Below are positions 6,080 to 25,904 of a stretch of DNA of 26,021 nucleotides, piece by piece. Each line of letters begins with the position of its first letter. The stretch's first letter is position 1. The notes below the pieces were generated by a model. It ran no database searches. It was not told where the DNA came from and was given only the letters and a program-made list of their open reading frames with translations. The position numbers and the translations under genes are program-made. Source of the stretch: a virus; IMG/VR virus record IMGVR_UViG_3300025601_000102, positions 1-26,021 of that record. The stretch is one strand, 5' to 3'.

Positions 6080-7732
6080 ATGATATTAACAAAAGAATTA
6101 ATAATTAAAACATCACATAATAAAAAATTAAAACATTATAAAAGTCTAGGTTATGATATATCGATGGAATATATCAGTATTAATATAGAACATGCCCCAA
6201 AATATATAGGGAATGTGATAAAAGTTAAATGTGATTATTGTCTATCAATACATGACCGGAAAGTAGTTGATTACAATCGAATAGTTGATAAGAATATTGA
6301 TAAGAAATATGCCTGTTCAAGGAAATGTGGGGTTATTAAATCTACGGAAACAATAAATAAAACTGAGAAAAAACCACACCCAAACCTTGGTAAGAAGATA
6401 GAAATACATAAATCTAAGAAAATTAACAACAAAAGAAAAAATACCAATTTGTTGAAATATGGGGTTGAGCATGTATTACAGAACAAATTAATTCAAGATA
6501 AATTCAAAGAAACACACACAAATAAATATGGAGTTGATAACTATTCAAAAACGGAAGAATTTTTAACTAAACAAAAACTAAACAACCTACAAAAGTACGG
6601 AATTGAGCATATATCACAGATAAAAAGTGTGCGAGAAAAAACCACACAAACAAATTTAAAACGGTATGGTGTCAAATCCACACTAAACTCAGACATATCC
6701 AATAAAAGGCGAAGAGAAAAATTCCAAACAGAAGAACATAGAGGAAATTATGAAATTTCGAACCACGAAAATTATTTAAATTACATAGGTAATAGCGTAT
6801 CTCTTTTCATATGTGATTGTGATTGTGATCATACTTTTGAAATAAAATATGATAATTTCCAAAGTAGATTGAAATTTAACATACCATTATGTACCACATG
6901 CCACCCCATTGGGAATTCAACATCTATAAAGGAACAAGAATTATTCAATCTCATCTCCGAGCTCTATAAAGGAAATATTATACAATCATATCGAGATGGT
7001 TTAGAAATTGATATATATTTACCGGAACTAAAAATTGGATTTGAATTTAATGGTGTGTGGTGGCATTCAAATGTATACAAAAATAAAAATTACCATATAA
7101 ACAAACTAAACCATTTCAAAGACAAAGGAATTAAAATAATATATGTGTGGGAGGATGATTGGATACACAAAAATGATATTATAAAATCACAAATAGGGTA
7201 TTTACTCAAAACATCCAAAACCATAGGAGCAAGGAAATGTATTGTGAGAGAAATAATAGACACTAAAACATATAAAGATTTCCTAATAAAAAACCACGTA
7301 CAAGGATATGTAAAATCAAAAATAAAATTAGGACTTTATTACAATAATACATTAGTATCTCTAATGACATTTGATCACTCAGAAGGTCGAAAAAAAATGA
7401 TAGACTCAGAATGGAATCTATCAAGGTTCTGTAACGCCATAGACATGAGTGTAGTTGGTGGAGCCTCAAAACTATTAAAATACTTCATAGACATTTTTCA
7501 CCCAACTAGGATAATATCATATGGTGACAGTGACTGGTCTAGGGGGAATCTTTACTATAAATTGGGATTTTCAAAATTACATGATACAAAACCAGACTAC
7601 AAATACCTAGTAAATAACACCAGAATACACAAATCTAGATTTAGAAAATCATATACTGGTATATCTGAATCAAGTCTAGATTTACCAAAAGTATGGGACT
7701 GTGGGAAGATAAAGTTCGAAAAGAAATTATAA
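6080..7732 (+). CDS. free-standing homing endonuclease, Vsr-like with GNAT/Mom-like C-domain (550 aa)
   Basis: Order of parts: Zn-ribbon-like pairs (C51/C54, C79/C83); four KYGV-type repeats near residues 126-198 (LLKYGVEH, NKYGVDN, QKYGIEH, KRYGVKS), likely DNA-binding; another Cys-rich knuckle (245-274); a Vsr/EDxHD-type nuclease core (EIDIYLPELKIGFEFNGVWW, H329, then IIYVWEDDW); and a C-terminal acyltransferase-like domain (LGLYYNNTLVSLMTFD, RFCN, GGASKLLKYF, GDSDWSRGNLYYKLGF). This architecture is well known among mobile endonucleases of T4-like phages. It sits between the baseplate genes and the sheath gene and cuts alleles lacking it, to spread itself. No sign of decay. Confidence 0.85.
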   Translation: MILTKELIIKTSHNKKLKHYKSLGYDISMEYISINIEHAPKYIGNVIKVKCDYCLSIHDRKVVDYNRIVDKNIDKKYACSRKCGVIKSTETINKTEKKPHPNLGKKIEIHKSKKINNKRKNTNLLKYGVEHVLQNKLIQDKFKETHTNKYGVDNYSKTEEFLTKQKLNNLQKYGIEHISQIKSVREKTTQTNLKRYGVKSTLNSDISNKRRREKFQTEEHRGNYEISNHENYLNYIGNSVSLFICDCDCDHTFEIKYDNFQSRLKFNIPLCTTCHPIGNSTSIKEQELFNLISELYKGNIIQSYRDGLEIDIYLPELKIGFEFNGVWWHSNVYKNKNYHINKLNHFKDKGIKIIYVWEDDWIHKNDIIKSQIGYLLKTSKTIGARKCIVREIIDTKTYKDFLIKNHVQGYVKSKIKLGLYYNNTLVSLMTFDHSEGRKKMIDSEWNLSRFCNAIDMSVVGGASKLLKYFIDIFHPTRIISYGDSDWSRGNLYYKLGFSKLHDTKPDYKYLVNNTRIHKSRFRKSYTGISESSLDLPKVWDCGKIKFEKKL

Positions 7733-7785: not shown

Positions 7786-10700
7786 TTATGATTGAATAAA
7801 CCCACCTGACTGAATTGCTCCAGACCCAAGTACATTTACGTTATTCACAATAATACCCATACCCATGATTGGCTCAACATATGTATCAAGAACTCCAATT
7901 TGATTCTGAATAATCTGATCATTGTTGTTCTCATCATCACACTTATTGAAGTATTCATAAAGACCACCCTTAGACTTATATGATTCACAGATTGTATCTG
8001 CTCTCAATTTAATCTCGGCTCTAACCTCAGGTGTGTTAAACTTCCATTGGAAAGTCAATAACATATCAGCAAGTTCTCGTTCAAGTTCAATAAGAACTTC
8101 TCTTACGTGTATGAAAGATAAAGATGATAATAATAATGTTTGAGCTGTGTTCTCAGTCTCGATTACATATCCTCTGTTTCTTTTAAATACGATTGGATTC
8201 ATCATAGCACCGTTCAAGTTTCCAATATCTTCTGGATTGAAATCTTGTTCAAGTCCAGCAATATTTGTAATTCGACCATTACTGATACCGGCAGCAATTG
8301 TCCACGGAACAATGTTAGTTACTGTTGATGTTTGCTTTCTCATATAAGTAAGTCCAACATATGCTGATGGTGGAACACTCGTAGGTCGACCATTATCATT
8401 TACAGTTACGTATGGTCCAAAATATCCAACAGATGATACACCAACTCCATCACCGAAAGAGTAAAGGAATGCTGGAGAACTATTAGGATCTCCACCACTA
8501 GCTATAAAATCTGTTTGTAGAACACCATCAGTATTAACAAATGATGGAGAACTTGAATTCTTAAATGATTTCATAGAAGGCATATTCAATATACCCAAGA
8601 TGTCTAATCTCTCACCACAGATATCAACTAACTGTTGTTTTGAACGTTCAGCCAAACCAAGTCCAAATGCATCGATTAAGTATCTGAAATCAAATGCTTC
8701 TTTATTAGTAACTGATTTGAATAACGGTGTTCCTTTTGCAACCAAATTAAGAATATCATCTTGTTTAGATTCAGTACCATCTGGTAATGAATCTTGTCTT
8801 ATACGGAAACCTTTAAGACTAATAGCCTTGTAAGTTGACGTATAATCATCAATATTAGTGTATCGGAAAGTTTGTTTATCACCATCACCGAAATCTCTTA
8901 TCTTTATTTCATCATCACACGTTATTTCAACAAGTGTTGTGTCGTTAGCCCATAGTCTCTTAGAAAGAACTCTTGTGAGTTTTCTAGGTACCTCATCAGA
9001 CATAAGTGATGTAGTAGAAAATGATGCTTCAAGGTAATCTCCAATTTTAACCTCCGTATATCTACTTGCTCTCACTAGTATCTTGTTAGCTACAGAAGTG
9101 TAACCAGCTGGTTCTTCAATCTCAACAGATTGTTTATAGGTTGAATCGAACGAATTTATATAGAAATTATTATTCGAAAGTAGTGAATTTGAATCAGGAT
9201 CAGAAACACCTAATGTACCAAAACTTTCAATTGTTTGAAGTGTTGGGTTTTCGAATGTTATTTTCATATTAAGTTCATTATCAATATACATATCAAGGTG
9301 TAATGGTCTATCTTCACCCATCTCACTAAAAGCATATAAGTTATTAACACTCAATATCTCTTCTGTCACATTTTCAGATATTTCATATGCGTAATAACTG
9401 TACGTAGCTGACGAAGACGCAAATACACCACCACTCAATGTTGAGAGTTGTATTGCTCTATTCAGTGCCGATGCCGGTACTGAATATCCGTTAGTAGGAT
9501 TCAGACCTTCATCCGATTGAACAGTGAATACACCATTATTATTAATACCACCAAACATGAATTGATATCCGGATCCTGATTGACTTACATCAGCCGAAGC
9601 TAAGAAATCTTTATTTAAATCAATGTTAGTATCACCAGTACCAGACAAAGATGATAAATCAACACCATATGGGTCTGTTTCTAATAGATTAACACCAAGT
9701 ACTAAATAATTATACCCGGCAAGTGAAGCTGCTACCGATGCACCCGGTACGAACTGAGCTACTAGTGTAGAGTAATTTGTTTTTTGGTAGATAACATCAG
9801 TTGAGTTGATAAGACCTTGTTCATACTTTCCATATAAATCAGAATATCTACCAACAACACCCATTGTTAATCCAGCAGGTTCAGATTTTGTCTCTGCACC
9901 ATCCAAACCTAATATCAATTCATCATCCAACTTGTAAAAAACAAGTGGTGATCCGTTAGTTGCAATCGCAACAGCGTCTGCGATACTAGCAAAGTAATTA
10001 TCTACATAATCATCCTCAACAACAGAGTTACTAGATGGGCTAGCCACGGGGTAACTGAAGTTCAATACAAATGACCTATTTAGGGTATTTGTATTATTAA
10101 TATCTGTCACATCTACAAAAACTAATGATGATTTTTGTGGGTCACCAGTTAATCCAAGTGGATCCAACAACAAAGAACCTTGATTCGATGATGAAGAGTT
10201 AGCATACGCCAATAAATTATTGAAATATTTCAAACTTCTATATTCGTCATAATTTCTCGTAGTAATAGATTGGTTCGTATTATCAAATACAACTCTAAAA
10301 GAAGAAGATCCAATACTATCATAATAATAATCCTGACCAACACCATAAGATAATGGTTTGAAGTTAGTATCACCAGATCCAACAGATCCATGATTTAAAG
10401 ATACATCATTCATATTCAATGATGTTAGTATGAAACTACCAGTAATACTGACTGAGAATGTAGCGTAACCGAGAACAATATCAGATGCTGATACTAACGG
10501 ATTTGAGTCCGGTGTCGTTGTCTGATATACTCTAACCGTACCCGTTGAATCAACAACAGTTGTAGCTACATACGATTGAGTTGATGTCGATACTGGATAG
10601 TATGATGAATTTATTTCAAAACTAGCACCTGATACTGTAACAGCATCACCACCGATAACAGCGTAACCATTATCAGAAATTGTATCAACACTATAATCCA

Positions 10701-12021
10701 TCGATATAGTTGCTCCCGATACTAGTGAATAAGTTGCACTTAAATCATTAACATATCCTTCGGAGAACCACCATGTTCTATTCGAAGGATTGTGTACTGA
10801 TCCTGATATGATACCACCAACTCTTTCATCACTACTATAAAAGTCTCCTCTATATGCGTGATCACCGGCAACGCTAGGTATAGAGTTTGTATCGTATAAT
10901 GCCATAACGTTTCCTGGTCTATCAAGTACTGTCTGTTTCAAACTGATACTCTCAGTAATAGTTTCCTTATATGATAAGAAATCTATATTAACTTGACCAT
11001 CAGCAGTACCATCATTTGAATCAAGGCTACTATAATTAGTAGAACCATTCGTTGGTGGATTTGCTTGTAGACTATCACTAACCATATTATTACCGATGAG
11101 ATCGACAAGACCTTTTGGATAATCAGATTCAAATAAATCGATGTTAAATGCACAGAACACACCATGTTGGTCAGTTCCTCTATTTATAACAGTTTCGATA
11201 AATATATTTCTACCACTTCGGTCTCTGAAATACGGAATCATAGAAACACCATCAGCATAAGTAAGTGTGGTAATGTTTCTATCGGTCGTAAAGTTTCTAA
11301 CTTGATTCTTTCTAAGTCCCGTTGGTGAGAAATATTGTGAGAATCTAGCATCCACTGATAAATTTGAATAATTTGAATAATCTCCAGCTACAACAATAAC
11401 ATCAACAAGATAATCGGAAACCAAATCTTTGTTATTAACATATGGTGGAATATCTTCCTGTGATCCATACCAGTCTAACATAGGTACATCAAATCCGGGT
11501 CTCTGTGATTTTATCACGAAAATAGTAACATACTTATCTGATAGATTTGTAAAGTTCAATAACCTACCTTCATAACCAACATTATCACTAGCTACGTTTA
11601 AGAAAGATTCCGTATCTCTCTTCCAAAATCCAGTTGTATCGAAAAACCTTCTATAAGGTCCCAATCGCTCAACATCGTTTTGTAGAGTAGTTGCACATGA
11701 AAGTGATTGATATTCTATCTGGTCAAGAACATCATCTGTCATTAATAAGTTAATTGCGTATACAGGAGATGCCTCTAACATTTTAGTAATAGTTCTGTGG
11801 AAAAATGAACCCCTTCGTTCTAACTGACGATCAAGAGGACCAAAAGTTGATTCGAATGTGTTTAAGTTGTCTACAAGGATTGGTGTATTCACCGGACCCT
11901 TTTTAGACACACCTATAACCGTGTTACTTATTCCTGTAATAGTAGGACTAGATGTAACCGCCTGAGAACTTTCTTCAAGGAAAATTCCTGGTCTTCCGTA
12001 GTTTCCGATTTGGATTGCCAT
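7786..12021 (-). CDS. giant tail sheath protein (1411 aa)
   Basis: The N-terminus (MAIQIGNYGRPGIFLEESSQ) has the conserved Gly-Arg-Pro-Gly-Ile/Val-Phe sheath opening, and the last ~330 residues contain the sheath C-domain: PWTIAAGISNGRI, RGYVIETENTAQTLLLSSLS, FIHVREVLIELERELADMLL and an end region with YVEPIMGMGIIVNNVNVL. This subunit forms the contractile outer tube that drives the inner tube through the host envelope. T4 gp18 has 659 residues, so this protein is about twice the usual size. The extra sequence is a Ser/Thr/Asn-rich, beta-like region of about 750 residues (roughly 320-1070), presumably displayed on the outside of the tail. An ATATATA stretch lies about 30-40 bases upstream of the ATG. 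Confidence 0.9.
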   Translation of the reverse strand: MAIQIGNYGRPGIFLEESSQAVTSSPTITGISNTVIGVSKKGPVNTPILVDNLNTFESTFGPLDRQLERRGSFFHRTITKMLEASPVYAINLLMTDDVLDQIEYQSLSCATTLQNDVERLGPYRRFFDTTGFWKRDTESFLNVASDNVGYEGRLLNFTNLSDKYVTIFVIKSQRPGFDVPMLDWYGSQEDIPPYVNNKDLVSDYLVDVIVVAGDYSNYSNLSVDARFSQYFSPTGLRKNQVRNFTTDRNITTLTYADGVSMIPYFRDRSGRNIFIETVINRGTDQHGVFCAFNIDLFESDYPKGLVDLIGNNMVSDSLQANPPTNGSTNYSSLDSNDGTADGQVNIDFLSYKETITESISLKQTVLDRPGNVMALYDTNSIPSVAGDHAYRGDFYSSDERVGGIISGSVHNPSNRTWWFSEGYVNDLSATYSLVSGATISMDYSVDTISDNGYAVIGGDAVTVSGASFEINSSYYPVSTSTQSYVATTVVDSTGTVRVYQTTTPDSNPLVSASDIVLGYATFSVSITGSFILTSLNMNDVSLNHGSVGSGDTNFKPLSYGVGQDYYYDSIGSSSFRVVFDNTNQSITTRNYDEYRSLKYFNNLLAYANSSSSNQGSLLLDPLGLTGDPQKSSLVFVDVTDINNTNTLNRSFVLNFSYPVASPSSNSVVEDDYVDNYFASIADAVAIATNGSPLVFYKLDDELILGLDGAETKSEPAGLTMGVVGRYSDLYGKYEQGLINSTDVIYQKTNYSTLVAQFVPGASVAASLAGYNYLVLGVNLLETDPYGVDLSSLSGTGDTNIDLNKDFLASADVSQSGSGYQFMFGGINNNGVFTVQSDEGLNPTNGYSVPASALNRAIQLSTLSGGVFASSSATYSYYAYEISENVTEEILSVNNLYAFSEMGEDRPLHLDMYIDNELNMKITFENPTLQTIESFGTLGVSDPDSNSLLSNNNFYINSFDSTYKQSVEIEEPAGYTSVANKILVRASRYTEVKIGDYLEASFSTTSLMSDEVPRKLTRVLSKRLWANDTTLVEITCDDEIKIRDFGDGDKQTFRYTNIDDYTSTYKAISLKGFRIRQDSLPDGTESKQDDILNLVAKGTPLFKSVTNKEAFDFRYLIDAFGLGLAERSKQQLVDICGERLDILGILNMPSMKSFKNSSSPSFVNTDGVLQTDFIASGGDPNSSPAFLYSFGDGVGVSSVGYFGPYVTVNDNGRPTSVPPSAYVGLTYMRKQTSTVTNIVPWTIAAGISNGRITNIAGLEQDFNPEDIGNLNGAMMNPIVFKRNRGYVIETENTAQTLLLSSLSFIHVREVLIELERELADMLLTFQWKFNTPEVRAEIKLRADTICESYKSKGGLYEYFNKCDDENNNDQIIQNQIGVLDTYVEPIMGMGIIVNNVNVLGSGAIQSGGFIQS

Positions 12022-17430: not shown

Positions 17431-18057
17431 TCAATCCTCCTCTTGGTTCGATCCGTCTTTTTTCTTTGATAACGTTTCATTGATAATATCATTCAATTTA
17501 GATGGATCAATTATCTGACCATCAGAATCATCTTTCTCAACACCACCAGTTTTCATACTACCAACTACTTCAGTTAAATCCTTTCTAAAATCTCTATATG
17601 ATTTTTCAATCTCAGTTCTTTGTTTGGAAACAAATTTAGAGTTTTCTCTAATCTCTTTAATAGTCTGATTAACAACTTCATGCATTCGTGCCGAATTATC
17701 ACCATTATCAACCTGTCTTAATTGAACAAGGAAATTTTTCCGTGTCATTTTTTGTAAAAATAATGTCTCAGCATACACCATAGCATCTTCATTCGATTTC
17801 TGTTGTATATAAGGATGATCCTTTAACGTGGGAAAGTCAGATAAATATAAATCTACCAGTGATTCCATCAAATCGATACCCTTCAATGAAACCGTTTGTA
17901 AGTCGGCATCATAATCATATAAAGAAATATCACCCAATTCTGGTAAATCATCAAGAGTAGCTAAATGAGAACTTATATCAAAATCCTCACCATGTTCTTG
18001 TATCAAATCGAATTCTTCCGAAAGTTTTTCAGACTTACTCTGTTTTTTAGCACCCAT
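17431..18057 (-). CDS. conserved virion or packaging candidate next to terminase (208 aa)
   Basis: ATG 18057 (MGAKKQSKSEKLSEEFDLIQ) is preferred; an in-frame GTG at 18063 is possible. The protein is helical and charged, with DLPELGDISLYDYDADL, a helix MESLVDLYLSDFPTLKDHPY, QKMTRKNFLVQLRQVDNGDN and a coiled region IKEIRENSKFVSKQRTEIEK. I recall this sequence type in T4-like environmental phages but not a proven role. It is divergent from the terminase locus, so a small terminase or head-completion role is a reasonable guess only. Confidence 0.65.
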   Translation of the reverse strand: MGAKKQSKSEKLSEEFDLIQEHGEDFDISSHLATLDDLPELGDISLYDYDADLQTVSLKGIDLMESLVDLYLSDFPTLKDHPYIQQKSNEDAMVYAETLFLQKMTRKNFLVQLRQVDNGDNSARMHEVVNQTIKEIRENSKFVSKQRTEIEKSYRDFRKDLTEVVGSMKTGGVEKDDSDGQIIDPSKLNDIINETLSKKKDGSNQEED

Positions 18058-18136
18058 AGTCACATAATTTCATTTCTGTATATATACGAATATAAAAGTA
18101 GAAAAAATACCATTTTTACATTCATATATATACAAC

Positions 18137-18313
18137 ATGGCACGACCAAAAGGACAAACGAAACAGAAAGTAGGTTTCTCTATTGATATTACTACCGTCA
18201 AAGAACTAGATAATTTCTGTGATTCCAAAGATATAAATAGGTCCAAGTTGGTAAATATGATAGTCAAAGACTACTTAGAAAATCCAAGAAACTCAGAATG
18301 GCAAGACAGATAG
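18137..18313 (+). CDS. ribbon-helix-helix DNA-binding protein (58 aa)
   Basis: From ATG 18137: MARPKGQTKQKVGFSIDITT, then VKELDNFCDSKDINRSKLVN and MIVKDYLEN. A short strand (KVGFSIDI) followed by two helices with an NRSKLVNMIV turn is the RHH pattern of Arc/CopG/MetJ-type dimers. The gene overlaps the start of the terminase N-part by 16 bases in another frame, so the two are surely co-expressed. It may repress the divergent promoter between 18057 and 18137, or work as a DNA-recognition partner of the terminase. A TATATATACAAC stretch lies directly before the ATG. Confidence 0.75.
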   Translation: MARPKGQTKQKVGFSIDITTVKELDNFCDSKDINRSKLVNMIVKDYLENPRNSEWQDR

Positions 18314-18795
18314 TATGGACAACAAAAATGGTTGATGAAGCAGCCGACCAGTTAAATAACGGTTTTCTTCTATCAAGAGCTGATAATCCGTTTCACGAAG
18401 GAACGATTGGGCTCAGAAAAGATAAAATTACTTTTCGAATATCTCCGACCGAATTACAGGAATATATTAAATGCAAAACTGACGTACATCACTTTGCCGA
18501 AAATTACTGTTGGGTAAAGGGTGATAAAGGAGAACCAGTACGACTTAAACTAAGAGATTATCAAAAAGATATTCTCGATAAATTTCACAATAATAGATTT
18601 AATATACTAATGGCAAGCCGCCAAGTGGGAAAGTGTTTTGAGTATAACACAACTCTACTTATATATGACAAAAAGTTAGAAGTTTATAGAGATATTAAGT
18701 TTTTCCAATTATTATTTGAATTAAAAACTGATAAAAACATATATGATTATATAAAAAATACACTATATACACTTTTAAACATAATAAGTGATTGA
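18298..18795 (+). CDS. terL: large terminase N-part fused to N-intein (165 aa)
   Basis: Residues 1-112 are the start of a T4-type terminase: adenine-side motif region LRDYQKDILDKF (85-96) and the P-loop MASRQVGK (105-112). At Cys113 the sequence changes to intein: CFEYNTTLLIYDKKLEVYRD, splicing block A, then 33 more residues to TGA 18795. The break falls between Gly-Lys and the Thr that would complete Walker A; that Thr starts the extein in the gene at 19908. The product alone cannot bind ATP properly; trans-splicing must join both parts to make the DNA-packaging motor subunit. The intein tail after about residue 140 is low-complexity and hydrophobic-helical. Confidence 0.9.
   Translation: MARQIVWTTKMVDEAADQLNNGFLLSRADNPFHEGTIGLRKDKITFRISPTELQEYIKCKTDVHHFAENYCWVKGDKGEPVRLKLRDYQKDILDKFHNNRFNILMASRQVGKCFEYNTTLLIYDKKLEVYRDIKFFQLLFELKTDKNIYDYIKNTLYTLLNIISD
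18634..18792 (+). other. split intein, N-fragment (53 aa)
   Basis: Starts with the catalytic Cys (TGT 18634) in CFEYNTTLLI, the block A pattern Cys-x-x-x-(D/N)-T-x-(V/I). No block B is present in this fragment; block B-like sequence is found in the C-fragment. The fragment is therefore shorter than in canonical split inteins (around 100 aa) and resembles the atypical split described for TerL inteins such as AceL-TerL. Confidence 0.8.
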
Positions 18796-18861
18796 TGTGT
18801 CGGTATGGGTACACGGTAGATAGGGAAGGGTTTTTATTCTAATATATACATGTAAATAAAT

Positions 18862-19878
18862 ATGTATATGGAAAGTATAATCAAAGAATATAATCTCAAA
18901 ATAAGTGAAAATATCAACATTAATGATAATGATGAAACGGTAACCTGTAGGATATGTGGTGAACAATGTAAACGAGTGTATGGTAGACACTTAAAACATT
19001 CACATAATAATATATCAACCAAGGAATATAAAGAACTGTTTCCTGGATCACCAATAACAGCACTGGGTGATAAGAAGAATACATCAAAGAATAGTGGTCA
19101 ACACATGAAGTCGGATAAATATAAGAAAATGTTTTCTGAGAAGTTTTCCGGTGAAAATAATCCAATGCATAAATCCAAAACCACCGAGAAATTTAGAAAA
19201 AGTGTCTCACCATTCAGTAAAGAATTTTATAAATTAAGATATCCAGATATGACAGAAAAAGAAATAACGGAGAAAATATCAAATCTTGCAATCGAAATAT
19301 CCAAGGACCGATTACTACCCTCAAATAAAGAGTATTGGATAGAGAAAGGGTTTTCTGAAAAAGATTCCATTAAAAAAGTATCAGATTCTCAAACGACATT
19401 CTCAAAGGAAATTTGTATTAAAAAATATGGTGAGGAAAGGGGTGTTGAAATATGGTTGGAACGACAAGCAAAGTGGCATAAAAACTTCAAGAAATCTAAT
19501 TTCAGCAAGATAAGCCAAGAATTGTTTCAATCTATTTGGGTATTAATTAAATCATCAATTAATAAGGAACATATTTATTTTGCCTCACTAAATGAGAATA
19601 AGGAAATAGTCGAATCCACACGAAATTATGAATATCGTTTAAAATTGAACGGATCATTTATATTACCGGACTTTTTTATGATAGATATTAATAAAATAAT
19701 TGAATTTGACGGTACATATTATCATCGAAACACACCTGAGAATAAAAGAAGGGAGGATGAAAGAGATGAGAATATCCAAAAAAGTGGATATGAAGTTCTA
19801 CACATATCAGAGAAGGAATATAAAAGTGATAAAGAGCAAACCATACAGAAATGTATCAATTTCCTACTTGATAAATAA
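18862..19878 (+). CDS. homing endonuclease inside the fractured terminase (338 aa)
   Basis: N-terminal zinc finger C29/C32...H43/H48 (TCRICGEQCKRVYGRHLKHS) of the MucR/Ros-like kind with the usual ISTKEYKELFPGSPI follow-up; a NUMOD3-like SGENNPMHKSK (96-106); a middle DNA-binding part with KKYGEERGVEIWLERQAKWH (188-206); and a C-terminal nuclease with LPDFFMIDINKIIEFDGTYYHR (D270, E281, D283, H288) and YEVLHISEKEY, of Vsr/PD-(D/E)xK type. It has its own frame and an AATATATACATG stretch upstream. It sits between the two intein halves, 66 and 29 bases from them, and probably cuts the uninterrupted terminase gene so the whole arrangement spreads by repair. Confidence 0.85.
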   Translation: MYMESIIKEYNLKISENININDNDETVTCRICGEQCKRVYGRHLKHSHNNISTKEYKELFPGSPITALGDKKNTSKNSGQHMKSDKYKKMFSEKFSGENNPMHKSKTTEKFRKSVSPFSKEFYKLRYPDMTEKEITEKISNLAIEISKDRLLPSNKEYWIEKGFSEKDSIKKVSDSQTTFSKEICIKKYGEERGVEIWLERQAKWHKNFKKSNFSKISQELFQSIWVLIKSSINKEHIYFASLNENKEIVESTRNYEYRLKLNGSFILPDFFMIDINKIIEFDGTYYHRNTPENKRREDERDENIQKSGYEVLHISEKEYKSDKEQTIQKCINFLLDK

Positions 19879-19907
19879 TATAATATACCGATTTTACTAT
19901 ATAATAT

Positions 19908-20345
19908 ATGAGGAACCTATTAAAATTGATAATATACAAGTTAATTGAATTCGTTGAATATATCGAATATCGTAATATGAATCTAGATGAGTGTGATATA
20001 TCTAAGAAGTTTATAGATGAGTTACACACAGATAGATATCAAGTATTATCAGATACGGGTTATGTGGATATATCATCATTGAGCATCACACAACCATATA
20101 CACATTATGAGGTTTTATTGAATAATGGTCTTAATATAACATGTGCTGATACACATATGTTATTTGATGAAAATATGAAAATAAAATTTGTGGAGGATAT
20201 TATTTTGGGTGATTTAATACAAACAAAGTATGGGTTGTCCAAAGTATCAAAATTAGAAAAGAAAAGACATCGTACCTCAATGGGTGATTTATCGGTCATG
20301 GATTCTAATATGAGATATTACACTAATGGTATATTATCACACAAC
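19908..20345 (+). other. split intein, C-fragment (up to 146 aa)
   Basis: Holds everything downstream of block A: the CADTHML block B-like segment (residues 79-85), strand regions, block F and the C-terminal His-Asn (AAC 20343-20345), with Thr as the +1 nucleophile. The His-Asn-Thr end is standard for active inteins. No endonuclease domain is embedded, because the endonuclease is a separate gene upstream. Confidence 0.8.
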
Positions 20346-22103
20346 ACTATCTGTTCATCAATAATGCTACTCCACTTCGTTCTATTCAATAATAATAAGA
20401 ACGCTCTAGTAACAGCAAATAAATTAGATACTGCCGTTGAAGTACTGGATAAAATACGTGAAATATACCAAAGACTACCATTCTTTTTACAATCAGGGAT
20501 TGTCAATTGGAGTATGAAGACAATTGTTTTTGAAAATAAAAGCCGAATTAAAGGTTTTGCCACAACCAAAACAGCATCAATTGGTCAGGCTGCCGATTTC
20601 TTATACTTAGATGAGTTTGCATACTTACCAGATACGATTGCCGAGAAGTTTTATAAATCTGTATTTCCGACAGTTTCCTCAATGGAGAACTCTAAGATTA
20701 TAATAACATCAACACCAAACGGATATAATCTATTTCATAAACTTTTAATGGATGCTGAGAAACCAGAGGGTGAGAAATCTAACTACATGCCTAATAGAGT
20801 CTATTGGTGGCAAGTGGAAAAGAGACACGTTACTTATATAAGACTCAATAAATCCAAATTATCCGATTCTGGGATTACTAAAGAAGAAGTTCTGGAGTTC
20901 ATGGTAAATAAATATACAGATACAAAGTGTGAATTGGCCTGGAATGATGAAATAAGTAAATGGGTTGTACATGTATTGAATAAGCCGTCCTGCACCGAGG
21001 AGATGATATTGAATGATGTTATAAAGGGTATAAAAGTACCAGTGTTGGGTGATGTAACAACTTGGAAAAAAGAAACCATCAAAGATATTGGGGGAGAAGA
21101 AGCTTTTAACCAAGAATTTGACCTTAGATTCATAAACACATCAAGATCATTGTTAGACGAAACTCTTATAAGAGACTTACGAGAAAATGCCGAAGAATAT
21201 ACATACCAACCAATCGATGAGATTGAGGAGAGATTGAGGTTCGATTTATCTGATTTGGTTTGGAACATCAATCCAAAGACTTACGAGCATGAAAAACGGA
21301 AGAAATACAAGATTATAATATCTGTTGATATTTCCGAAGGGTTAGGACAGGATTCATCAATCATAAATATGTTCAAAGTTGCACCCAAACCAGTTGAATT
21401 AATAAATAGAGATGGGTTCAAATATAAAAGTATAGGCGATTTTTACCAATTAGAACAGATTGGATTATTTAAAAATAACCTAGTATCTGTTAGTGAATTA
21501 TCCGAATTACTCTACCTAATATGTTTTGAACACTTCGACCCGGACAATGTTAAAGTTGTAGTTGAATTAAACAACTATGGTAATGAGTTGTTGGCTCACA
21601 TGCCTCACCTTTTTGATGGACATAACAATTATGGATCTTCTATATTCTTCCGTTACAAACACAGAATAGATTCTCATGATGAGAAACTTGGTTTAAAGGT
21701 GGGTGCTAATAAGAATTTATTGGTAAAAGATTACCAAGAAAGAATGGCTTCTCGTAGTATCAAAGTAACTAACCTCGAAACTATTACGGAAATGACAACA
21801 TTCATAAAACACACAACAAATGCCGGTAATATTGTTTATCGAGCCGATGGATCACAACACGATGATCAAGTTATGACAATTGTAAACATGTCTAGTGTAT
21901 TTGAGAAGACCGAGTTTAAACAAATAATCGAAGACTACCATTACGAAGACACACCAACAGATATTAAACGTGTTATCGATGAGGTTATGGATAAGATTGA
22001 ATACAATGATCCAGTAGATTATACACAACTTTTAGATGTCAGAAGACGTAAGATGGGTATAGGTAATAAATCCAAAATGGCCCGTAAAGAGTGGGGGTTA
22101 TAA
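19908..22103 (+). CDS. terL: C-intein fused to large terminase C-part (731 aa)
   Basis: Residues up to Asn146 are intein (block B-like NITCADTHMLF, block F DLSVMDSNMRYYTNG, block G GILSHN); Thr147 begins the extein TICSSIMLLHFVLFNNNKNA, the rest of Walker A. Terminase motifs follow: Walker B LYLDE (232-236), coupling motif STPNG (268-272), then the RNase H-like nuclease with Asp474 (IISVDISEGLGQD), Glu553 (VVVELNNYG) and Asp652/653 (GSQHDDQVM). All key residues are present. Extein total with the N-part is 697 aa, near the family size (T4 gp17, 610). The start is ATG 19908; ATG 19977 is an alternative that shortens only the intein head. Confidence 0.9.
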   Translation: MRNLLKLIIYKLIEFVEYIEYRNMNLDECDISKKFIDELHTDRYQVLSDTGYVDISSLSITQPYTHYEVLLNNGLNITCADTHMLFDENMKIKFVEDIILGDLIQTKYGLSKVSKLEKKRHRTSMGDLSVMDSNMRYYTNGILSHNTICSSIMLLHFVLFNNNKNALVTANKLDTAVEVLDKIREIYQRLPFFLQSGIVNWSMKTIVFENKSRIKGFATTKTASIGQAADFLYLDEFAYLPDTIAEKFYKSVFPTVSSMENSKIIITSTPNGYNLFHKLLMDAEKPEGEKSNYMPNRVYWWQVEKRHVTYIRLNKSKLSDSGITKEEVLEFMVNKYTDTKCELAWNDEISKWVVHVLNKPSCTEEMILNDVIKGIKVPVLGDVTTWKKETIKDIGGEEAFNQEFDLRFINTSRSLLDETLIRDLRENAEEYTYQPIDEIEERLRFDLSDLVWNINPKTYEHEKRKKYKIIISVDISEGLGQDSSIINMFKVAPKPVELINRDGFKYKSIGDFYQLEQIGLFKNNLVSVSELSELLYLICFEHFDPDNVKVVVELNNYGNELLAHMPHLFDGHNNYGSSIFFRYKHRIDSHDEKLGLKVGANKNLLVKDYQERMASRSIKVTNLETITEMTTFIKHTTNAGNIVYRADGSQHDDQVMTIVNMSSVFEKTEFKQIIEDYHYEDTPTDIKRVIDEVMDKIEYNDPVDYTQLLDVRRRKMGIGNKSKMARKEWGL

Positions 22104-22173
22104 TAATACACTCAATGTGATATCCCTTTTTTGCCTTTAAAGTAAGATTTGAGTTGGATATATGTGATTATAC

Positions 22174-22198
22174 CCAGTGCCATAACATATGGCACTGG
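22174..22198. repeat. GC-rich inverted repeat between convergent genes
   Basis: CCAGTGCCAT and ATGGCACTGG form a perfect 10-bp stem around AACAT. There is no T-run on the plus side (CAAAAAG follows) and none on the minus side, so it is not a classic intrinsic terminator, but it lies in the 172-base gap between the terminase and the convergent clpS gene and may still stop transcription or protect 3' ends. Confidence 0.55.
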
Positions 22199-22275
22199 CA
22201 AAAAGTTAAAATTTATAAAGGGTGGTAAAGAATACTACGACACCCAAGAAATTTCAATAGGTATTTAAAGAAACA

Positions 22276-22551
22276 CTAACTCGGCTCGATGGTGATGGAG
22301 AGTCCAGCCCCCTGAAGTTTATCCTTCATATCAGATAATTTTTCATAATCACCATACATAACATCACATTCACCCTTATAATGAACTTGGTGAGCACATT
22401 GGTTAGCCTGTTCAGCTTGATGATTACAAACCTTTACAAGACATTCAATAACCCAATCAAATGAATTATGATCATCATTATGTAGTGTTAATTTATATGG
22501 CTGTGATAGAATTTCATCAACCTGAGATTTCTTTTTTGTTTTAGTTGGCAT
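22276..22551 (-). CDS. clpS: ClpS, adaptor of the Clp protease (91 aa)
   Basis: A full-length ClpS: YKLTLHNDDHNSFDWVIECL, VKVCNHQAEQANQCAHQVHY, KGECDVMYGDYEKLSDMKDK, LQGAGLSITIE. The Asn-Asp-Asp (25-27) that grips the N-terminal amino group of substrates and His57 of the pocket are kept. ClpS hands proteins with N-terminal degradation signals to ClpA/ClpC-ClpP. The wording VCNHxxEQAxQCAxxVHYKG matches Bacteroidetes ClpS. It is 9 bases downstream of the HAD gene and co-directional. As a phage gene it probably redirects or blocks host N-degron proteolysis. Confidence 0.88.
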   Translation of the reverse strand: MPTKTKKKSQVDEILSQPYKLTLHNDDHNSFDWVIECLVKVCNHQAEQANQCAHQVHYKGECDVMYGDYEKLSDMKDKLQGAGLSITIEPS

Positions 22552-22560
22552 ATTTACTTT

Positions 22561-23124
22561 TTATTTATTTACTATTATAGGTGTTTTATCTGTTTTTGTC
22601 ACATCGATGATTTCAACTCGACAATCCATATCCTCAGCCCACATCGGGAATTCCTTAAGGTGTTCTTGTCTATCATCATACATAACAAATACTTCTGGGT
22701 TATATAGTTGTATAAGCTCAGAGTAGAGTTTTGTTTTAAATAGGAATGTATCACCAATACCAGTAGATAGATATGTATGATTTCCAAAATCGATATTATG
22801 ACTTCTGAGAATTGCCATTACTTCCTTTCTAAGTGACAATCTACCCGGTTTTTCTCCGTTCCATGTCTTATCAATCCTCCCAGTTGCCATAATCGGTAGA
22901 GTACCATCTTCGGCACAAGATTCGAGATATCTCTGATAAACCCATGGATTAACTGGAATATCAAAAATTTCCAAATCAAGTGATTCAGGTTTCGACCACC
23001 AACCATCATGTGGGAATTTCAAACCTGTAAATTTCTCCCATGCCATTTTACCAGGTATCTCTTTTGGAGAGTATACAAGTGTATCATCAAAGTCAAAACT
23101 CACTATTTTCCTAATTTTTTCCAT
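22561..23124 (-). CDS. HAD-superfamily phosphatase-like protein (187 aa)
   Basis: HAD motifs in order: motif I SFDFDDTLV (9-17, two nucleophile/acid Asp), motif II MATGR (79-83), Lys of motif III near LFKTKL (128-133), and motif IV YDDRQEHL (149-156). The spacing and the YDDRQEHL ending fit the HAD domains often linked to phage nucleic-acid end repair ('Swiss army knife' RNA-repair-like) rather than metabolic phosphatases. It could remove phosphates from nucleic acid ends or nucleotides. It leads a two-gene minus-strand unit with clpS. Confidence 0.8.
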   Translation of the reverse strand: MEKIRKIVSFDFDDTLVYSPKEIPGKMAWEKFTGLKFPHDGWWSKPESLDLEIFDIPVNPWVYQRYLESCAEDGTLPIMATGRIDKTWNGEKPGRLSLRKEVMAILRSHNIDFGNHTYLSTGIGDTFLFKTKLYSELIQLYNPEVFVMYDDRQEHLKEFPMWAEDMDCRVEIIDVTKTDKTPIIVNK

Positions 23125-23186
23125 TTTTCGTCTAATTTTTCACACAGAGGGTAATAATAAGATATATATATATTAATTATATCACA

Positions 23187-23194
23187 CAAATATA
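23187..23194 (-). promoter_or_regulatory. Bacteroidetes-type -7 box candidate
   Basis: The minus strand reads TATATTTG, matching TAnnTTTG, 63 bases before the HAD gene start; the region up to the gene also contains an ATATATATATA run. No clear -33 TTG is seen. It lies in the 91-base divergent gap with the small membrane gene at 23216. Confidence 0.3.
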
Positions 23195-23215
23195 AGAAAA
23201 ATATTCGAATTAACT

Positions 23216-23329
23216 ATGTGGAATACAATATTACAGATAATAAGTAAGATAGATGTGAAGACGATGCTAATTATCGGACTTCTATCAGTTCTCTTTCTTC
23301 TATTTCAAACCCATGTTCTCAGGAGATGA
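23216..23329 (+). CDS. single-span membrane peptide (37 aa)
   Basis: ATG 23216: MWNTILQIISKIDVKTMLII, then GLLSVLFLLFQTHVLRR, TGA 23327. One strong hydrophobic segment (about residues 17-30) followed by His and Arg fits a small inner-membrane protein. It overlaps the next gene by 17 bases in the +1 frame, at AGG AGA TGA, so either the two are translationally coupled or a +1 slip joins the membrane anchor to the coiled coil that follows. Possible lysis (i-spanin-like) part. Confidence 0.55.
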   Translation: MWNTILQIISKIDVKTMLIIGLLSVLFLLFQTHVLRR

Positions 23330-23654
23330 TAATCTAGATGATCGAGAACGATTAGAGAAAAACAACAAAGAATTAGTTGAAGAGAGAAAAGTCTTGGAAA
23401 ACGCTTACGTTTTAATACAGAAAGATTTTAAAAGAGATTCTACCCAAAACGTAAAACTGAAGAAAGAAATTAAATTACTCGAAGCTGTCTTAGCTAATAA
23501 GGATGATCAAATCAGAAAAGCCAAAGCAGAACTTGATAAAGCAAAAGAAATATCTGATATAACTCGTAAACAAATAAAAAAGTTAGAAGAAAATCCTATA
23601 AAACTACCAATGGAGGATTTACTTCCCGCCATAAATGAAAAAACAACTAATTAA
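23313..23654 (+). CDS. coiled-coil protein (113 aa)
   Basis: Almost entirely charged heptad helix: ERLEKNNKELVEERKVLENA, KLKKEIKLLEAVLANKDDQI, KAKAELDKAKEISDITRKQI, then a Pro-containing tail. It has no signal or membrane segment of its own; the preceding overlapping frame supplies one. Together the two resemble an inner-membrane-anchored coiled coil such as an i-spanin or a tail/envelope-linked rod. The next gene starts one base after its stop. Confidence 0.65.
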   Translation: MFSGDDNLDDRERLEKNNKELVEERKVLENAYVLIQKDFKRDSTQNVKLKKEIKLLEAVLANKDDQIRKAKAELDKAKEISDITRKQIKKLEENPIKLPMEDLLPAINEKTTN

Positions 23655-23655
23655 A

Positions 23656-24258
23656 ATGAAGAAATTAACTATACTGTTATTCACATTATTACTATCAACA
23701 CAGGTCTTTTCACAAGAGAAAGAGTTCTATCAATTATATACGGATAATTTAGTAGAATCCTTAGTAGATACCGATTGTGTTGAAATAGATACTAATTTGA
23801 TAGATAATTATGTATTCACACCACCAGAATATTACGTTATTGATGGTGATACAGTTGGTATAACATTAACAATAGAACAAGTTCAACATATTAATTCCGA
23901 GTTAGAAATGTTGAAATTGTTTAAAGTATTGGATAGTCAAACACAGGATGTTGATCAATTCTATATAGATGTTATAAATAATCAAAACGAAAAAATGTCT
24001 GTTTTACAAACAACACTTACTAAAATAAGAGAATCAGGTACGAAACAAGATGATATTATAATCAAATTGAAAAGGCAATTGAAAATAAGGACTGCACAAT
24101 ATGAATCATCGGGAGAACAGATTTCCAATGATGAAATTATAATTGAGGGATTGAAGAAAGATGTTACAAAACAGAAGGCACAAAAAATAGGTGCTTTTAT
24201 TGGAGCTGGTACTGGTGGTGCCGGGGTAATAGTTCTTCTCATTCTAATGTTGAGGTAA
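23656..24258 (+). CDS. exported coiled-coil protein with C-terminal membrane anchor (200 aa)
   Basis: ATG 23656 begins MKKLTILLFTLLLSTQVFSQ, a signal peptide cut after Ser-Gln; an earlier in-frame ATG at 23635 overlaps the gene before. The mature part has an acidic domain, then a coiled coil (EKMSVLQTTLTKIRES; IIKLKRQLKIRTAQYESSGE), and ends in a hydrophobic span GAFIGAGTGGAGVIVLLILM with a final Arg. The topology is periplasmic with a C-terminal anchor. It follows the coiled-coil gene after one base, so the three genes act as one cassette, possibly for lysis or envelope fusion. No lipobox Cys is present. Confidence 0.7.
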   Translation: MKKLTILLFTLLLSTQVFSQEKEFYQLYTDNLVESLVDTDCVEIDTNLIDNYVFTPPEYYVIDGDTVGITLTIEQVQHINSELEMLKLFKVLDSQTQDVDQFYIDVINNQNEKMSVLQTTLTKIRESGTKQDDIIIKLKRQLKIRTAQYESSGEQISNDEIIIEGLKKDVTKQKAQKIGAFIGAGTGGAGVIVLLILMLR

Positions 24259-24314
24259 TGTGAGAAAAACGGGTTTCTAAACTAAATATATAACATATAA
24301 AAATATTTAACAAA

Positions 24315-24956
24315 ATGAGCTATACTAAAAAATTTGAAAATTTTCAAAAAAGTAAAAAGACTAAGGATATAACTCCGAAATCAAAAGAACAAGATGAACT
24401 TAATGAAGGTGCAAATGAGGTAGGTAACATGTACAAAGTTGTAACTACTATTGACGTACCAACATCTTTGATAAATGCGTACACTAAGAAAGTGAAGGAT
24501 ACTTTTGATAAAGATATCAACTCAACTTGGGGTAAAGAAAGTATAGCAGAAGAATTAGTTAAGTTTGTCAATATGACATATCTTAATATAGACACTATTC
24601 ACGCTGGAGCATTAACAGGAGATCCTGATCCAGCTGCACAAACACAAGCACAACCGTTATCAATGGCTCAGGTTCAACCACAAGCTCAGGCTCAGGCACA
24701 AGGTCAGGCACAAGGTCAGGTACAAATTGATCCACAAGCTCAGGCACAAGGTCAGGTACAAGTTGACCCACAAGCTCAGGCACAAGGTCAGGTACAAGTT
24801 GACCCACAAGCTCAGGCACAAGGTCAGGTACAAGTTAATCCACAAGCTCAGGCTCAGGCACAAGCACAAATACCACCAACATCTGATGAGTTTGGAGAAA
24901 TTCAAGATGATGAGGAAGTTCAAGATGATGAGGATGATGAAACTCTTCCTATTTAA
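24315..24956 (+). CDS. leader protein with Gln/Ala-rich repeats (213 aa)
   Basis: [20 protein letters not shown] is leader-like. A small helical domain follows ([40 protein letters not shown]), then a low-complexity region of repeated [12 protein letters not shown] units and a very acidic tail ([13 protein letters not shown]). The repeat part is surely disordered. No enzymatic motif is seen. A strong terminator follows. The combination of leader, spacer and acidic tail would fit a head-internal or scaffold-type protein, but this is inference. Confidence 0.7.
24729..24869 (+). repeat. 36-bp tandem repeats (12-aa [12 protein letters not shown])
   Basis: Three full units start at 24729, 24765 and 24801, plus a partial fourth at 24837 that turns into AQAQAQ. 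Units differ by only a few bases (GATCCA, GACCCA, AATCCA), so the expansion is recent and in frame. Copy number probably varies between relatives. Confidence 0.9.
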
Positions 24957-24976
24957 GGAATTTTCAAATAAAAACT

Positions 24977-25009
24977 AAAAAGGGAGGATTTTTATCCTCC
25001 CTTTTTTTT
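24977..25009 (+). terminator. intrinsic terminator
   Basis: AAAAAGGGAGGAT pairs with ATCCTCCCTTTTT around a TTTT loop (13-bp perfect stem), followed by a T-run to 25009. It closes the Gln/Ala-repeat gene, 20 bases after its stop. The A-run on the other side would also allow minus-strand termination. Confidence 0.9.
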
Positions 25010-25032
25010 ATATATAATAAAAGAAGGAAATT

Positions 25033-25293
25033 ATGAAAAATATCAAAACAATAAACGAATACTATGATGATAATGAATCAGTTGCACAGATGGGTGTATC
25101 TGGTGATAATCACGGACACGAAGGAGAAAACGATGAAGAATCATTTGATGATGGAATATTTGATGATATAGAAGCTGATCTCGACACTATGCCAACAGAC
25201 GAGGCAGCCGATTTCGTAAATAAAATATCTAGGTGGTGTAAAATTAAGTTTGAGAAATTCGGAAAAGCCGAAGATGGAGAAGAAGAAGAATAA
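25033..25293 (+). CDS. small acidic protein with CTS-like leader (86 aa)
   Basis: MKNIKTINEYYDDNESVAQM carries the shared leader; the rest is strongly acidic (FDDGIFDDIEADLDTMPTDE) with a short helical end (ADFVNKISRWCKIKFEKFGK) and a Glu-rich tail. An AGAAGGA ribosome site lies 5-6 bases before the ATG, one of the few clear ones here. One base separates its stop from the next start. Function is unknown; the acidic nature with a leader recalls small internal head proteins. Confidence 0.7.
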   Translation: MKNIKTINEYYDDNESVAQMGVSGDNHGHEGENDEESFDDGIFDDIEADLDTMPTDEAADFVNKISRWCKIKFEKFGKAEDGEEEE

Positions 25294-25294
25294 C

Positions 25295-25903
25295 ATGAAG
25301 TATATTAGGGAATATAATAACTATAATAATGATTTGATTATAGTAGATGTACAAAAATCTTTCAAAGAGTTTTTTACAGAAACATATTTAGAGAAAATTA
25401 AAGAACACTGTAAATTATTTCAAAATGTGTATCAAATATGGGACAATCACTCCGAGGAACAAAAACCCGATAGTGATTACCTATATGATTATAATCCTGA
25501 TATCCCAGTACATCAAGATTTATATCAATTTCCCAACCAAAGAAAACTCATTGAGAAGAGGTATAATTATAATGTTGATGCCGATTACTATAAAAGAATA
25601 TTAACGGAAGAGACACACTCCAAAATAAGTGAGATGGAGGATAATAAAACCATAAAGAGAGGTGATATGTTCTCAACGAAAGAAGGAACTGTAATTACCT
25701 ACATTGATAATTCACATAAATGGTTCCACTGTCCAAAAAAGCTATACAATCTATTAAATGACCACAAAGGTAAATCGGTGGAAATTATCGGTGGGGCAGA
25801 TGGTGAGTGTTTAGACGATGTTTTCATACTTGCTGAGAAAATGGGTGTTCGTGTTGTTCGAAATCATCAATTTATCTATTCAGCCACACATTGCCCAATA
25901 TAA
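25295..25903 (+). CDS. isochorismatase-like cysteine hydrolase family protein (202 aa)
   Basis: ATG 25295 starts MKYIREYNNYNNDLIIVDVQ: a leader joined directly to IVDVQKSFKEFF, the first strand with the catalytic Asp of cysteine hydrolases. Near the end, GGADGECLDDVFILAEKMGV has Cys in the nucleophile place, followed by RVVRNHQFIYSATHCPI. The middle is family-specific (WDNHSEEQKPDSDYLYDYNP; EKRYNYNVDADYYKR). The family cleaves C-N or vinyl-ether bonds in small molecules; the substrate here is unknown. An in-frame start at 25250 would overlap the preceding gene and is rejected. It is the only leader gene in the window with a good enzymatic assignment apart from the mini-kinase. Confidence 0.75.
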   Translation: MKYIREYNNYNNDLIIVDVQKSFKEFFTETYLEKIKEHCKLFQNVYQIWDNHSEEQKPDSDYLYDYNPDIPVHQDLYQFPNQRKLIEKRYNYNVDADYYKRILTEETHSKISEMEDNKTIKRGDMFSTKEGTVITYIDNSHKWFHCPKKLYNLLNDHKGKSVEIIGGADGECLDDVFILAEKMGVRVVRNHQFIYSATHCPI

Positions 25904-25904
25904 A

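What the first reader, a model, noticed from the sequence alone, without database searches (positions are those of the whole stretch)
18298..22103. Large terminase fractured by a split intein with a free-standing homing endonuclease between the halves
The sequence shows extein MASRQVGK then Cys-type intein start, stop, a complete endonuclease gene, and a second gene ending its intein with HN before Thr, continuing TICSS. The break is inside Walker A, so neither half can work as an ATPase. Fractured genes of this layout were described from marine metagenomes, with related endonucleases. Here the packaging motor itself depends on trans-splicing, so head filling could be timed by assembly of the two halves.
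Basis: partly seen in the sequence, partly recalled or inferred. Interest (0 to 1): 0.93.

Follow-up and report, generated by a model that had tools for sequence, protein, structure and literature searches.

The report
Phage packaging motor split by intein
In this virus of bacteria the gene for the DNA-packaging motor is broken in two at its ATP-binding site by a mobile element (a split intein with its own DNA-cutting enzyme), so the motor can only work after the two protein halves find each other and splice together; the element type is known, but this insertion site, its extra helices and its wide spread in giant phages are newly documented here.

Summary
Window 18298-22103 encodes a T4-type large terminase (TerL) split between Lys and Thr of its Walker A motif (SRQVGK|TICSS). 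The N-half ends in a 53-aa N-intein. A free-standing endonuclease gene follows. The C-half starts with a 146-aa C-intein ending HN. Spliced, they give 697 aa. A second contig (99.98% identical) and an empty-site relative (L003) support contiguity and exact junctions. The split lies between intein blocks A and B ('atypical'), as in AceL-TerL and GOS-TerL. The endonuclease's best fold match is I-Bth0305I (EDxHD/VSR-like), so this is a 'fractured gene' cassette. Among 39 relatives, 21 carry this endonuclease, 3 an unrelated one, 3 a relic, 7 none and 2 an unsplit intein. In three more-separated cases the halves lie 9 kb or 12.4 kb apart (the latter in the 735-kb phage), or on opposite strands about 22 kb apart. 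Between two phages the cassette is 98.8% identical while the flanking exteins are 89-90% identical, which indicates recent homing. Trans-splicing and homing explain everything seen; timed head filling has no support. It is a new variant of a known kind. Splicing and cleavage remain untested at the bench.

The parts
18298..18633 (+). TerL N-extein (112 aa), ending in Walker A ..ASRQVGK
   Evidence: PHROG terminase match; aligns with intact TerLs up to K112
18616..18633 (+). Walker A half SRQVGK; the partner TICSS starts at 20346
   Evidence: sequence; spliced motif SRQVGKTICSS at residue 107
18634..18795 (+). N-intein (53 aa, Cys1, block A) plus stop codon
   Evidence: profile match E 2e-16 for the identical L002; Cys1 in 39/39
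18736..18792 (+). extra helix at the end of the N-intein (NIYDYIKNTLYTLLNIISD)
   Evidence: conserved in relatives; corresponds to the first part of a 42-residue predicted helix in the unsplit intein of L104
18862..19878 (+). free-standing EDxHD/VSR-like homing endonuclease (338 aa)
   Evidence: Foldseek top hit 3r3p I-Bth0305I, prob 1.00, TMt 0.72; 19 homologs aligned
18946..19005 (+). probable zinc-binding motif C..CG..CKR.YG.HLK
   Evidence: invariant or near-invariant C29, C32, G33, Y40, G41, H43
19606..19875 (+). endonuclease catalytic domain (PDFF..IIEFDGTYYH..RDENI)
   Evidence: invariant D270, E281, H288; fold match
19908..20345 (+). C-intein (146 aa) ending GILSHN
   Evidence: PDB profile hits VidaL 1.9e-10, gp41-1, Cat; Intein_splicing weak
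19908..19973 (+). extra helix at the start of the C-intein (MRNLLKLIIYKLIEFVEYIEYR)
   Evidence: conserved across relatives; C-terminal part of the 42-residue helix in unsplit L104
20139..20156 (+). intein block B (TCADTH)
   Evidence: invariant A80, D81, H83
20277..20345 (+). intein blocks F and G (SMGDLSVMDSNMRYYTNGILSHN)
20346..22103 (+). TerL C-extein (585 aa; +1 Thr) plus stop; Walker B YLDEFA, C-motif ITSTPNG, nuclease D residues
   Evidence: 79% identical to intact L003

Best explanation
This is a mobile fractured-gene cassette in the large terminase gene. The N-half (112-aa extein + 53-aa N-intein) and the C-half (146-aa C-intein + 585-aa extein) are made as separate proteins, associate through the intein (probably helped by the paired helices at the split site), and trans-splice by the standard Cys1/Asn/+1 Thr chemistry into a 697-aa TerL with a restored Walker A motif. 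The EDxHD/VSR-like endonuclease between them cuts intein-free terL alleles of co-infecting phages at or near the Walker A codons, and repair copies the whole cassette into them. After spread the endonuclease can be lost or replaced, or the halves moved apart, while the gene stays split. Shown from sequence: the anatomy, exact junctions, fold assignments, purifying selection, and horizontal transfer of the cassette. Inferred: splicing, cleavage and its site, docking role of the helices.
For: Junctions exact against intact TerLs. C-intein homologous to VidaL, gp41-1 and Cat inteins; model of an unsplit relative has VidaL as top hit and Cat at rank 4. Catalytic residues kept: Cys1 39/39; C-terminal HN 33, LN 4, SN 1, SQ 1. 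Endonuclease fold = I-Bth0305I with conserved D/E/H motif. dN/dS below 0.5: N-intein 0.02-0.47, C-intein 0.10-0.38, endonuclease 0.05-0.41. L004 versus L005: cassette 98.8% identical (1592/1611), N-extein 89.0%, C-extein 90.3% (Fisher p 3e-33), drop at the intein edges; dS 0, 0 and 0.04 inside versus 0.5-0.6 outside. Occupied and empty alleles interleave on the TerL tree. Halves on opposite strands in L036's contig and 12.4 kb apart in LR756501 with no intact spare TerL. No Rfam intron.
Against: No biochemical evidence of splicing or of DNA cleavage. The A/B split needs threading of the N-intein into a near-complete C-intein, which some engineered pairs fail at (PMC11766414). The role of the helices rests on one predicted model of an unsplit relative with 24 sequences. 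In the window the block F His is replaced (..SNMRYY), a departure from many inteins, though L007 has the same residues. The window contig is only 26 kb, so a second terL elsewhere in this phage cannot be excluded.
Confidence: 0.92

Rival explanations
1. The interruption is removed at RNA level: an intron (group I or II) holding the endonuclease lies inside an intein gene, so the protein is made in one piece.
For: Phage terL genes split by group I introns with endonucleases are common (PMC12363816, PMC10448857). The endonuclease gene lies between the halves.
Against: No Rfam match at gathering threshold in the window, and no intron at a permissive threshold in 17800-22400. In relatives the endonuclease is absent and the gap is 18-82 nt, too short for an intron. 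In L036's contig the halves are on opposite strands about 22 kb apart. Both halves have conserved own starts.
Confidence: 0.02
2. The terL gene is dead (pseudogene) and another terminase does the work.
For: In the window contig a second terL cannot be excluded (26 kb). LR756501 has a second TerL-like ATPase ORF.
Against: Low dN/dS in exteins and intein parts. The paralog in LR756501 is ATPase-only and has SRQMGIT, without the Walker A Lys. No second full-length TerL in the other searched records.
Confidence: 0.03
3. The two halves work as a non-covalent two-subunit motor without splicing.
For: Each half is a stable conserved ORF; halves can be encoded far apart.
Against: The break is inside the P-loop, where Lys and Thr must be adjacent; splicing residues Cys1 and Asn are kept over deep divergence, which a docking-only domain would not need.
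Confidence: 0.02
4. The split intein has been co-opted as a switch that times or conditions packaging.
For: Many lineages keep the split after losing the endonuclease, so it persists without drive. Other inteins have been proposed as environmental sensors (PMC5050341).
Against: No sequence evidence of regulation. Very close relatives lack the intein (L003, L009-L012). Persistence is equally explained by difficulty of precise loss. Recent homing is documented.
Confidence: 0.06

Closest known systems
AceL-TerL, GOS-TerL and Cat-TerL atypically split inteins
   Same: Split inteins in a phage large terminase, with a short N-intein and a long C-intein (PMC11766414); Cat is among the closest solved relatives.
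   Different: Those have +1 Cys and N-inteins of 25, 37 and 30 aa (table in PMC11766414). Here +1 is Thr, at the Walker A K|T site, and the N-intein is 53 aa (54-62 in most relatives) because of an added helix matched by one on the C-intein.
Fractured genes with split inteins and EDxHD/VSR-like endonucleases (Dassa et al. 2009; paper not held, cited through PMC11766414, PMC10448857 and PMC12350094)
   Same: Same layout: N-half, free-standing endonuclease of the I-Bth0305I fold, C-half.
   Different: Host gene and site here are TerL Walker A (original set from memory: helicase, RNR, IMPDH, DNA polymerase). The same slot also holds an unrelated endonuclease, a relic or nothing in relatives.
Contiguous P-loop inteins, e.g. 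mycobacteriophage TerL1-a
   Different: Those are single-chain; here two genes.
Phage MIJ3 PolB split intein with HNH endonuclease
   Same: Split intein plus free-standing endonuclease in an isolated jumbo phage (PMC6892783).
   Different: Different gene and endonuclease family.
Ackermannviridae TerL inteins (Salmonella phages Vi01, Maynard)
   Same: C-intein 41% identical to the window's over residues 34-146.
   Different: Annotated as contiguous in Maynard and others; the leading C-helix is not covered by the match.

Membership tests
Split intein | N-part with Cys/Ser1 (block A) and C-part with blocks B, F, G ending in Asn/Gln, on separate ORFs | tested here: met
Split intein | HINT fold | tested here: met
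   PDB profile hits; model of unsplit relative L104, top hit VidaL prob 1.00
Split intein | trans-splicing activity | not testable with these tools
   needs co-expression
Atypically split intein (AceL-TerL type) | break between block A and block B | tested here: met
   block B TCADTH lies in the C-half at 20139-20156
Atypically split intein (AceL-TerL type) | same insertion site / +1 Cys as AceL-TerL and GOS-TerL | tested here: not met
   +1 Thr in the window and nearly all relatives versus +1 Cys in PMC11766414; site is Walker A
EDxHD/VSR-like homing endonuclease (I-Bth0305I) | catalytic-domain fold | tested here: met
   Foldseek 3r3p rank 1, prob 1.00, TMt 0.72, E 8e-3
EDxHD/VSR-like homing endonuclease (I-Bth0305I) | conserved acidic and His residues of the E-D-x-H-D motif | tested here: inconclusive
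   D270, E281, H288 invariant in 19 homologs; residue-by-residue equivalence to I-Bth0305I was not checked
EDxHD/VSR-like homing endonuclease (I-Bth0305I) | site-specific cleavage of the empty allele | not testable with these tools
   lateral transfer of the cassette is indirect support
T4-type TerL | Walker A, Walker B, C-motif and nuclease domain in the joined protein | tested here: met

The most novel reading that the evidence does not exclude
In this huge-phage lineage the fracture has become permanent and independent of its selfish origin. The matched helices on the two intein halves are a dedicated docking module that keeps the two-gene terminase efficient even when the halves are far apart or on opposite strands, so an essential motor is now obligatorily assembled by protein trans-splicing across whole clades, including the 735-kb phage.
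Probability: 0.35. Interest if true: 0.72.

Novelty: new variant of a known kind. Interest (0 to 1): 0.55.

Why it matters
TerL is the universal marker and essential motor of tailed phages. This family shows, in living relatives, the steps of a fractured gene: empty site, unsplit mini-intein, split with endonuclease, endonuclease replaced, relic or lost, and halves dispersed to opposite strands. That makes it a natural series for testing why split genes persist after the selfish enzyme is gone. It also warns that TerL-based phage trees and completeness calls can miss or truncate terL in huge phages, and it offers many new natural split-intein pairs (Thr+1, helix-extended) for protein engineering.

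Tried and rejected
Rfam intron search: nothing relevant. Assembly artefact: rejected by an independent contig and by the same layout in many unrelated contigs. Chance ORF: rejected by intact relatives. Endonuclease tail in L006 as a relic: not counted, because those bases also encode the conserved C-intein start in another frame; only L007, L086 and L112 relics (profile E 8e-5 to 2e-11) and, less firmly, the L037 tail were used. Alignment A4 with N- and C-halves together misaligned the N rows, so the model used the unsplit L104 with C rows. Helix amphipathicity in the window: N-helix stronger than shuffles (0.1%), C-helix not (19%), so no strong claim. PDB sequence search of the endonuclease gave nothing, although the fold search did. 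The Dassa 2009 and GOS-TerL papers are not held.

Full report
OBSERVATION. The first ends ..NILMASRQVGK and runs on into CFEYNTTLLIYDKK.., a class-1 intein start, before a stop after 53 intein residues. The third begins with 146 residues ending GILSHN and continues TICSSIMLLHF... PHROG and Pfam assign both exteins to T4-type large terminases. Joined, they give 697 aa with Walker A SRQVGKTICSS, Walker B YLDEFA, ITSTPNG and the acidic nuclease motifs. A second contig from another IMG/VR record (L002) is identical over 17846-25904 except for one gap, so the order is not an artefact of one assembly.

EMPTY SITES. A scan of viral contigs for the C-half gave 23 relatives. Fifteen have an uninterrupted TerL whose reading frame passes straight from K to T (or S), among them L003, 85% and 79% identical to the two exteins; its DNA alignment to the window breaks at 18632 and resumes at 20343.

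A LARGE FAMILY. A profile of the C-inteins found 322 loci in IMG/VR; 80 were kept, and those classified have the intein in TerL, nearly all at this same K|T (or K|S) site. For 39 non-redundant loci with both intein parts found, window included, the layouts are: 21 with the same endonuclease in the gap (870-2173 nt); 3 with an unrelated phrog_3339 endonuclease (on the opposite strand in two); 3 with only a relic of the endonuclease (55, 32 and 23 residues); 7 with a short gap and no endonuclease; 2 with other or unrecognised content; 2 with an unsplit intein in one ORF (L070, L104); and 1 with the halves 12.4 kb apart. The set was gathered by a pattern at the C-intein end and is therefore not a random sample. 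The 12.4-kb case is LR756501, the 735-kb genome described as the largest phage genome at the time (PMC7162821); some fifteen ORFs lie between its halves. Two further contigs extend this: in L077's contig the halves are about 9 kb apart, and in L036's contig the N-half is on the + strand at 1797-2300 and the C-half on the - strand at about 24507-26753. An RNA-level join in cis or a frameshift cannot bridge such cases. No second intact full-length TerL was found in these records; the TerL-like paralog in LR756501 lacks the nuclease domain and has SRQMGIT in place of a Walker A Lys.

INTEIN ANATOMY. Cys1 is present in 39 of 39, and the last two residues are HN in 33, LN in 4, SN in 1 and SQ in L028. 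Block B (TCADTH) lies in the C-half, so the break is between blocks A and B, the atypical arrangement with a short N-part known from AceL-TerL and GOS-TerL (PMC11766414). PDB profile hits of the C-inteins are VidaL (1.9e-10), gp41-1 and the consensus atypical intein Cat. Unlike the published TerL pairs, the N-intein continues into a helix (..RKLTILEKIKIKIYDLIYLLDK in relatives; NIYDYIKNTLYTLLNIISD here) and the C-intein begins with another (MFKFFKSVTIKLLYSLIQFIEKIEYR; MRNLLKLIIYKLIEFVEYIEYR here). In the unsplit L104 intein the same stretch is predicted as one 42-residue helix on a HINT fold (pLDDT 80, pTM 0.66). The gene is thus broken inside this helix; that the two helices pair again in the split form is inference.

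ENDONUCLEASE. Sequence search gives only weak DUF559/MTES_1575 hits. The model (mean pLDDT 79.5, pTM 0.40) has as its best PDB match the catalytic domain of I-Bth0305I (prob 1.00, TM 0.72 on the target, E 8e-3), the EDxHD/VSR-like homing family (PMC3943268). D270, E281 and H288 are invariant in 19 homologs and an N-terminal C..CG...YG.H motif suggests a zinc-binding DNA contact.

MOBILITY. On a TerL tree, empty, endonuclease-bearing and endonuclease-free alleles interleave (31 changes, least possible 6). The clearest case is L004 against L005: the cassette is 98.8% identical, the N-extein 89.0%, the C-extein 90.3% and the upstream 2 kb 83.1% (Fisher p 3e-33), with the steps at the intein edges. 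Synonymous divergence is 0, 0 and 0.04 for N-intein, C-intein and endonuclease but 0.61 and 0.53 for the exteins. That is the signature of recent homing of the whole split cassette. Pairs with measurable divergence show dN/dS below 0.5 in both intein parts and the endonuclease.

MECHANISM. Best supported: two polypeptides associate through the intein, splice and restore the P-loop (inferred from anatomy and conservation); the endonuclease cuts empty alleles and the cassette is copied in (transfer shown, cutting inferred). Loss of the endonuclease with retention of the split is shown by relics and short gaps. Rivals (intron, pseudogene, non-covalent motor, timing switch) are weighed in the rival section; only the switch remains open, without positive evidence.

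NOVELTY. Split inteins in TerL, P-loop TerL inteins (PMC5050341) and fractured genes with this endonuclease family are all known separately. The combination at the Walker A K|T site with Thr+1, the helix-extended atypical split, the exchange or loss of the endonuclease, and the dispersed halves in huge phages were not found in the papers that could be read; key older papers were not held, so this is a limited claim. I file it as a new variant of a known kind.

Noticed in passing
window 6080-7732 (+): Second homing endonuclease (phrog_3339, 8e-99), between an ORF of phrog_36717 and the tail-sheath gene; 45% identical to the endonuclease that sits in the TerL slot of L062.
   Followed up: partly
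L059, L065, L071, L100 (TerL C-half ORF of about 1121 aa): These terminases carry the split intein at Walker A and also a second, contiguous intein with LAGLIDADG-like motifs ending GIVVHN|C, placed before the VMTIVNA segment of the nuclease domain.
   Followed up: partly
L032 (Vibrio phage Va1, MK387337): terL is split by an intein at another site (..NFE|CNFLGSS), and the endonuclease, related to the window's, is fused in frame to the C-intein; annotated only as 'putative terminase' genes.
   Followed up: partly
L124 (LR756501 699400-701600): ATPase-only TerL paralog of 390 aa with a broken Walker A (SRQMGIT) in the 735-kb phage.
   Followed up: partly
L028 (LR756500): C-intein ends SQ rather than HN, next to a phrog_3339-like endonuclease gene and a second TerL-like fragment.
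   Followed up: no
window 24669-24864: Imperfect 36-nt direct repeats coding for [12 protein letters not shown] units in the ORF 24315-24956.
   Followed up: no
window 7786-12021 (-): Unusually long (1411 aa) tail sheath protein; sheath homology only in the C-terminal part.
   Followed up: no
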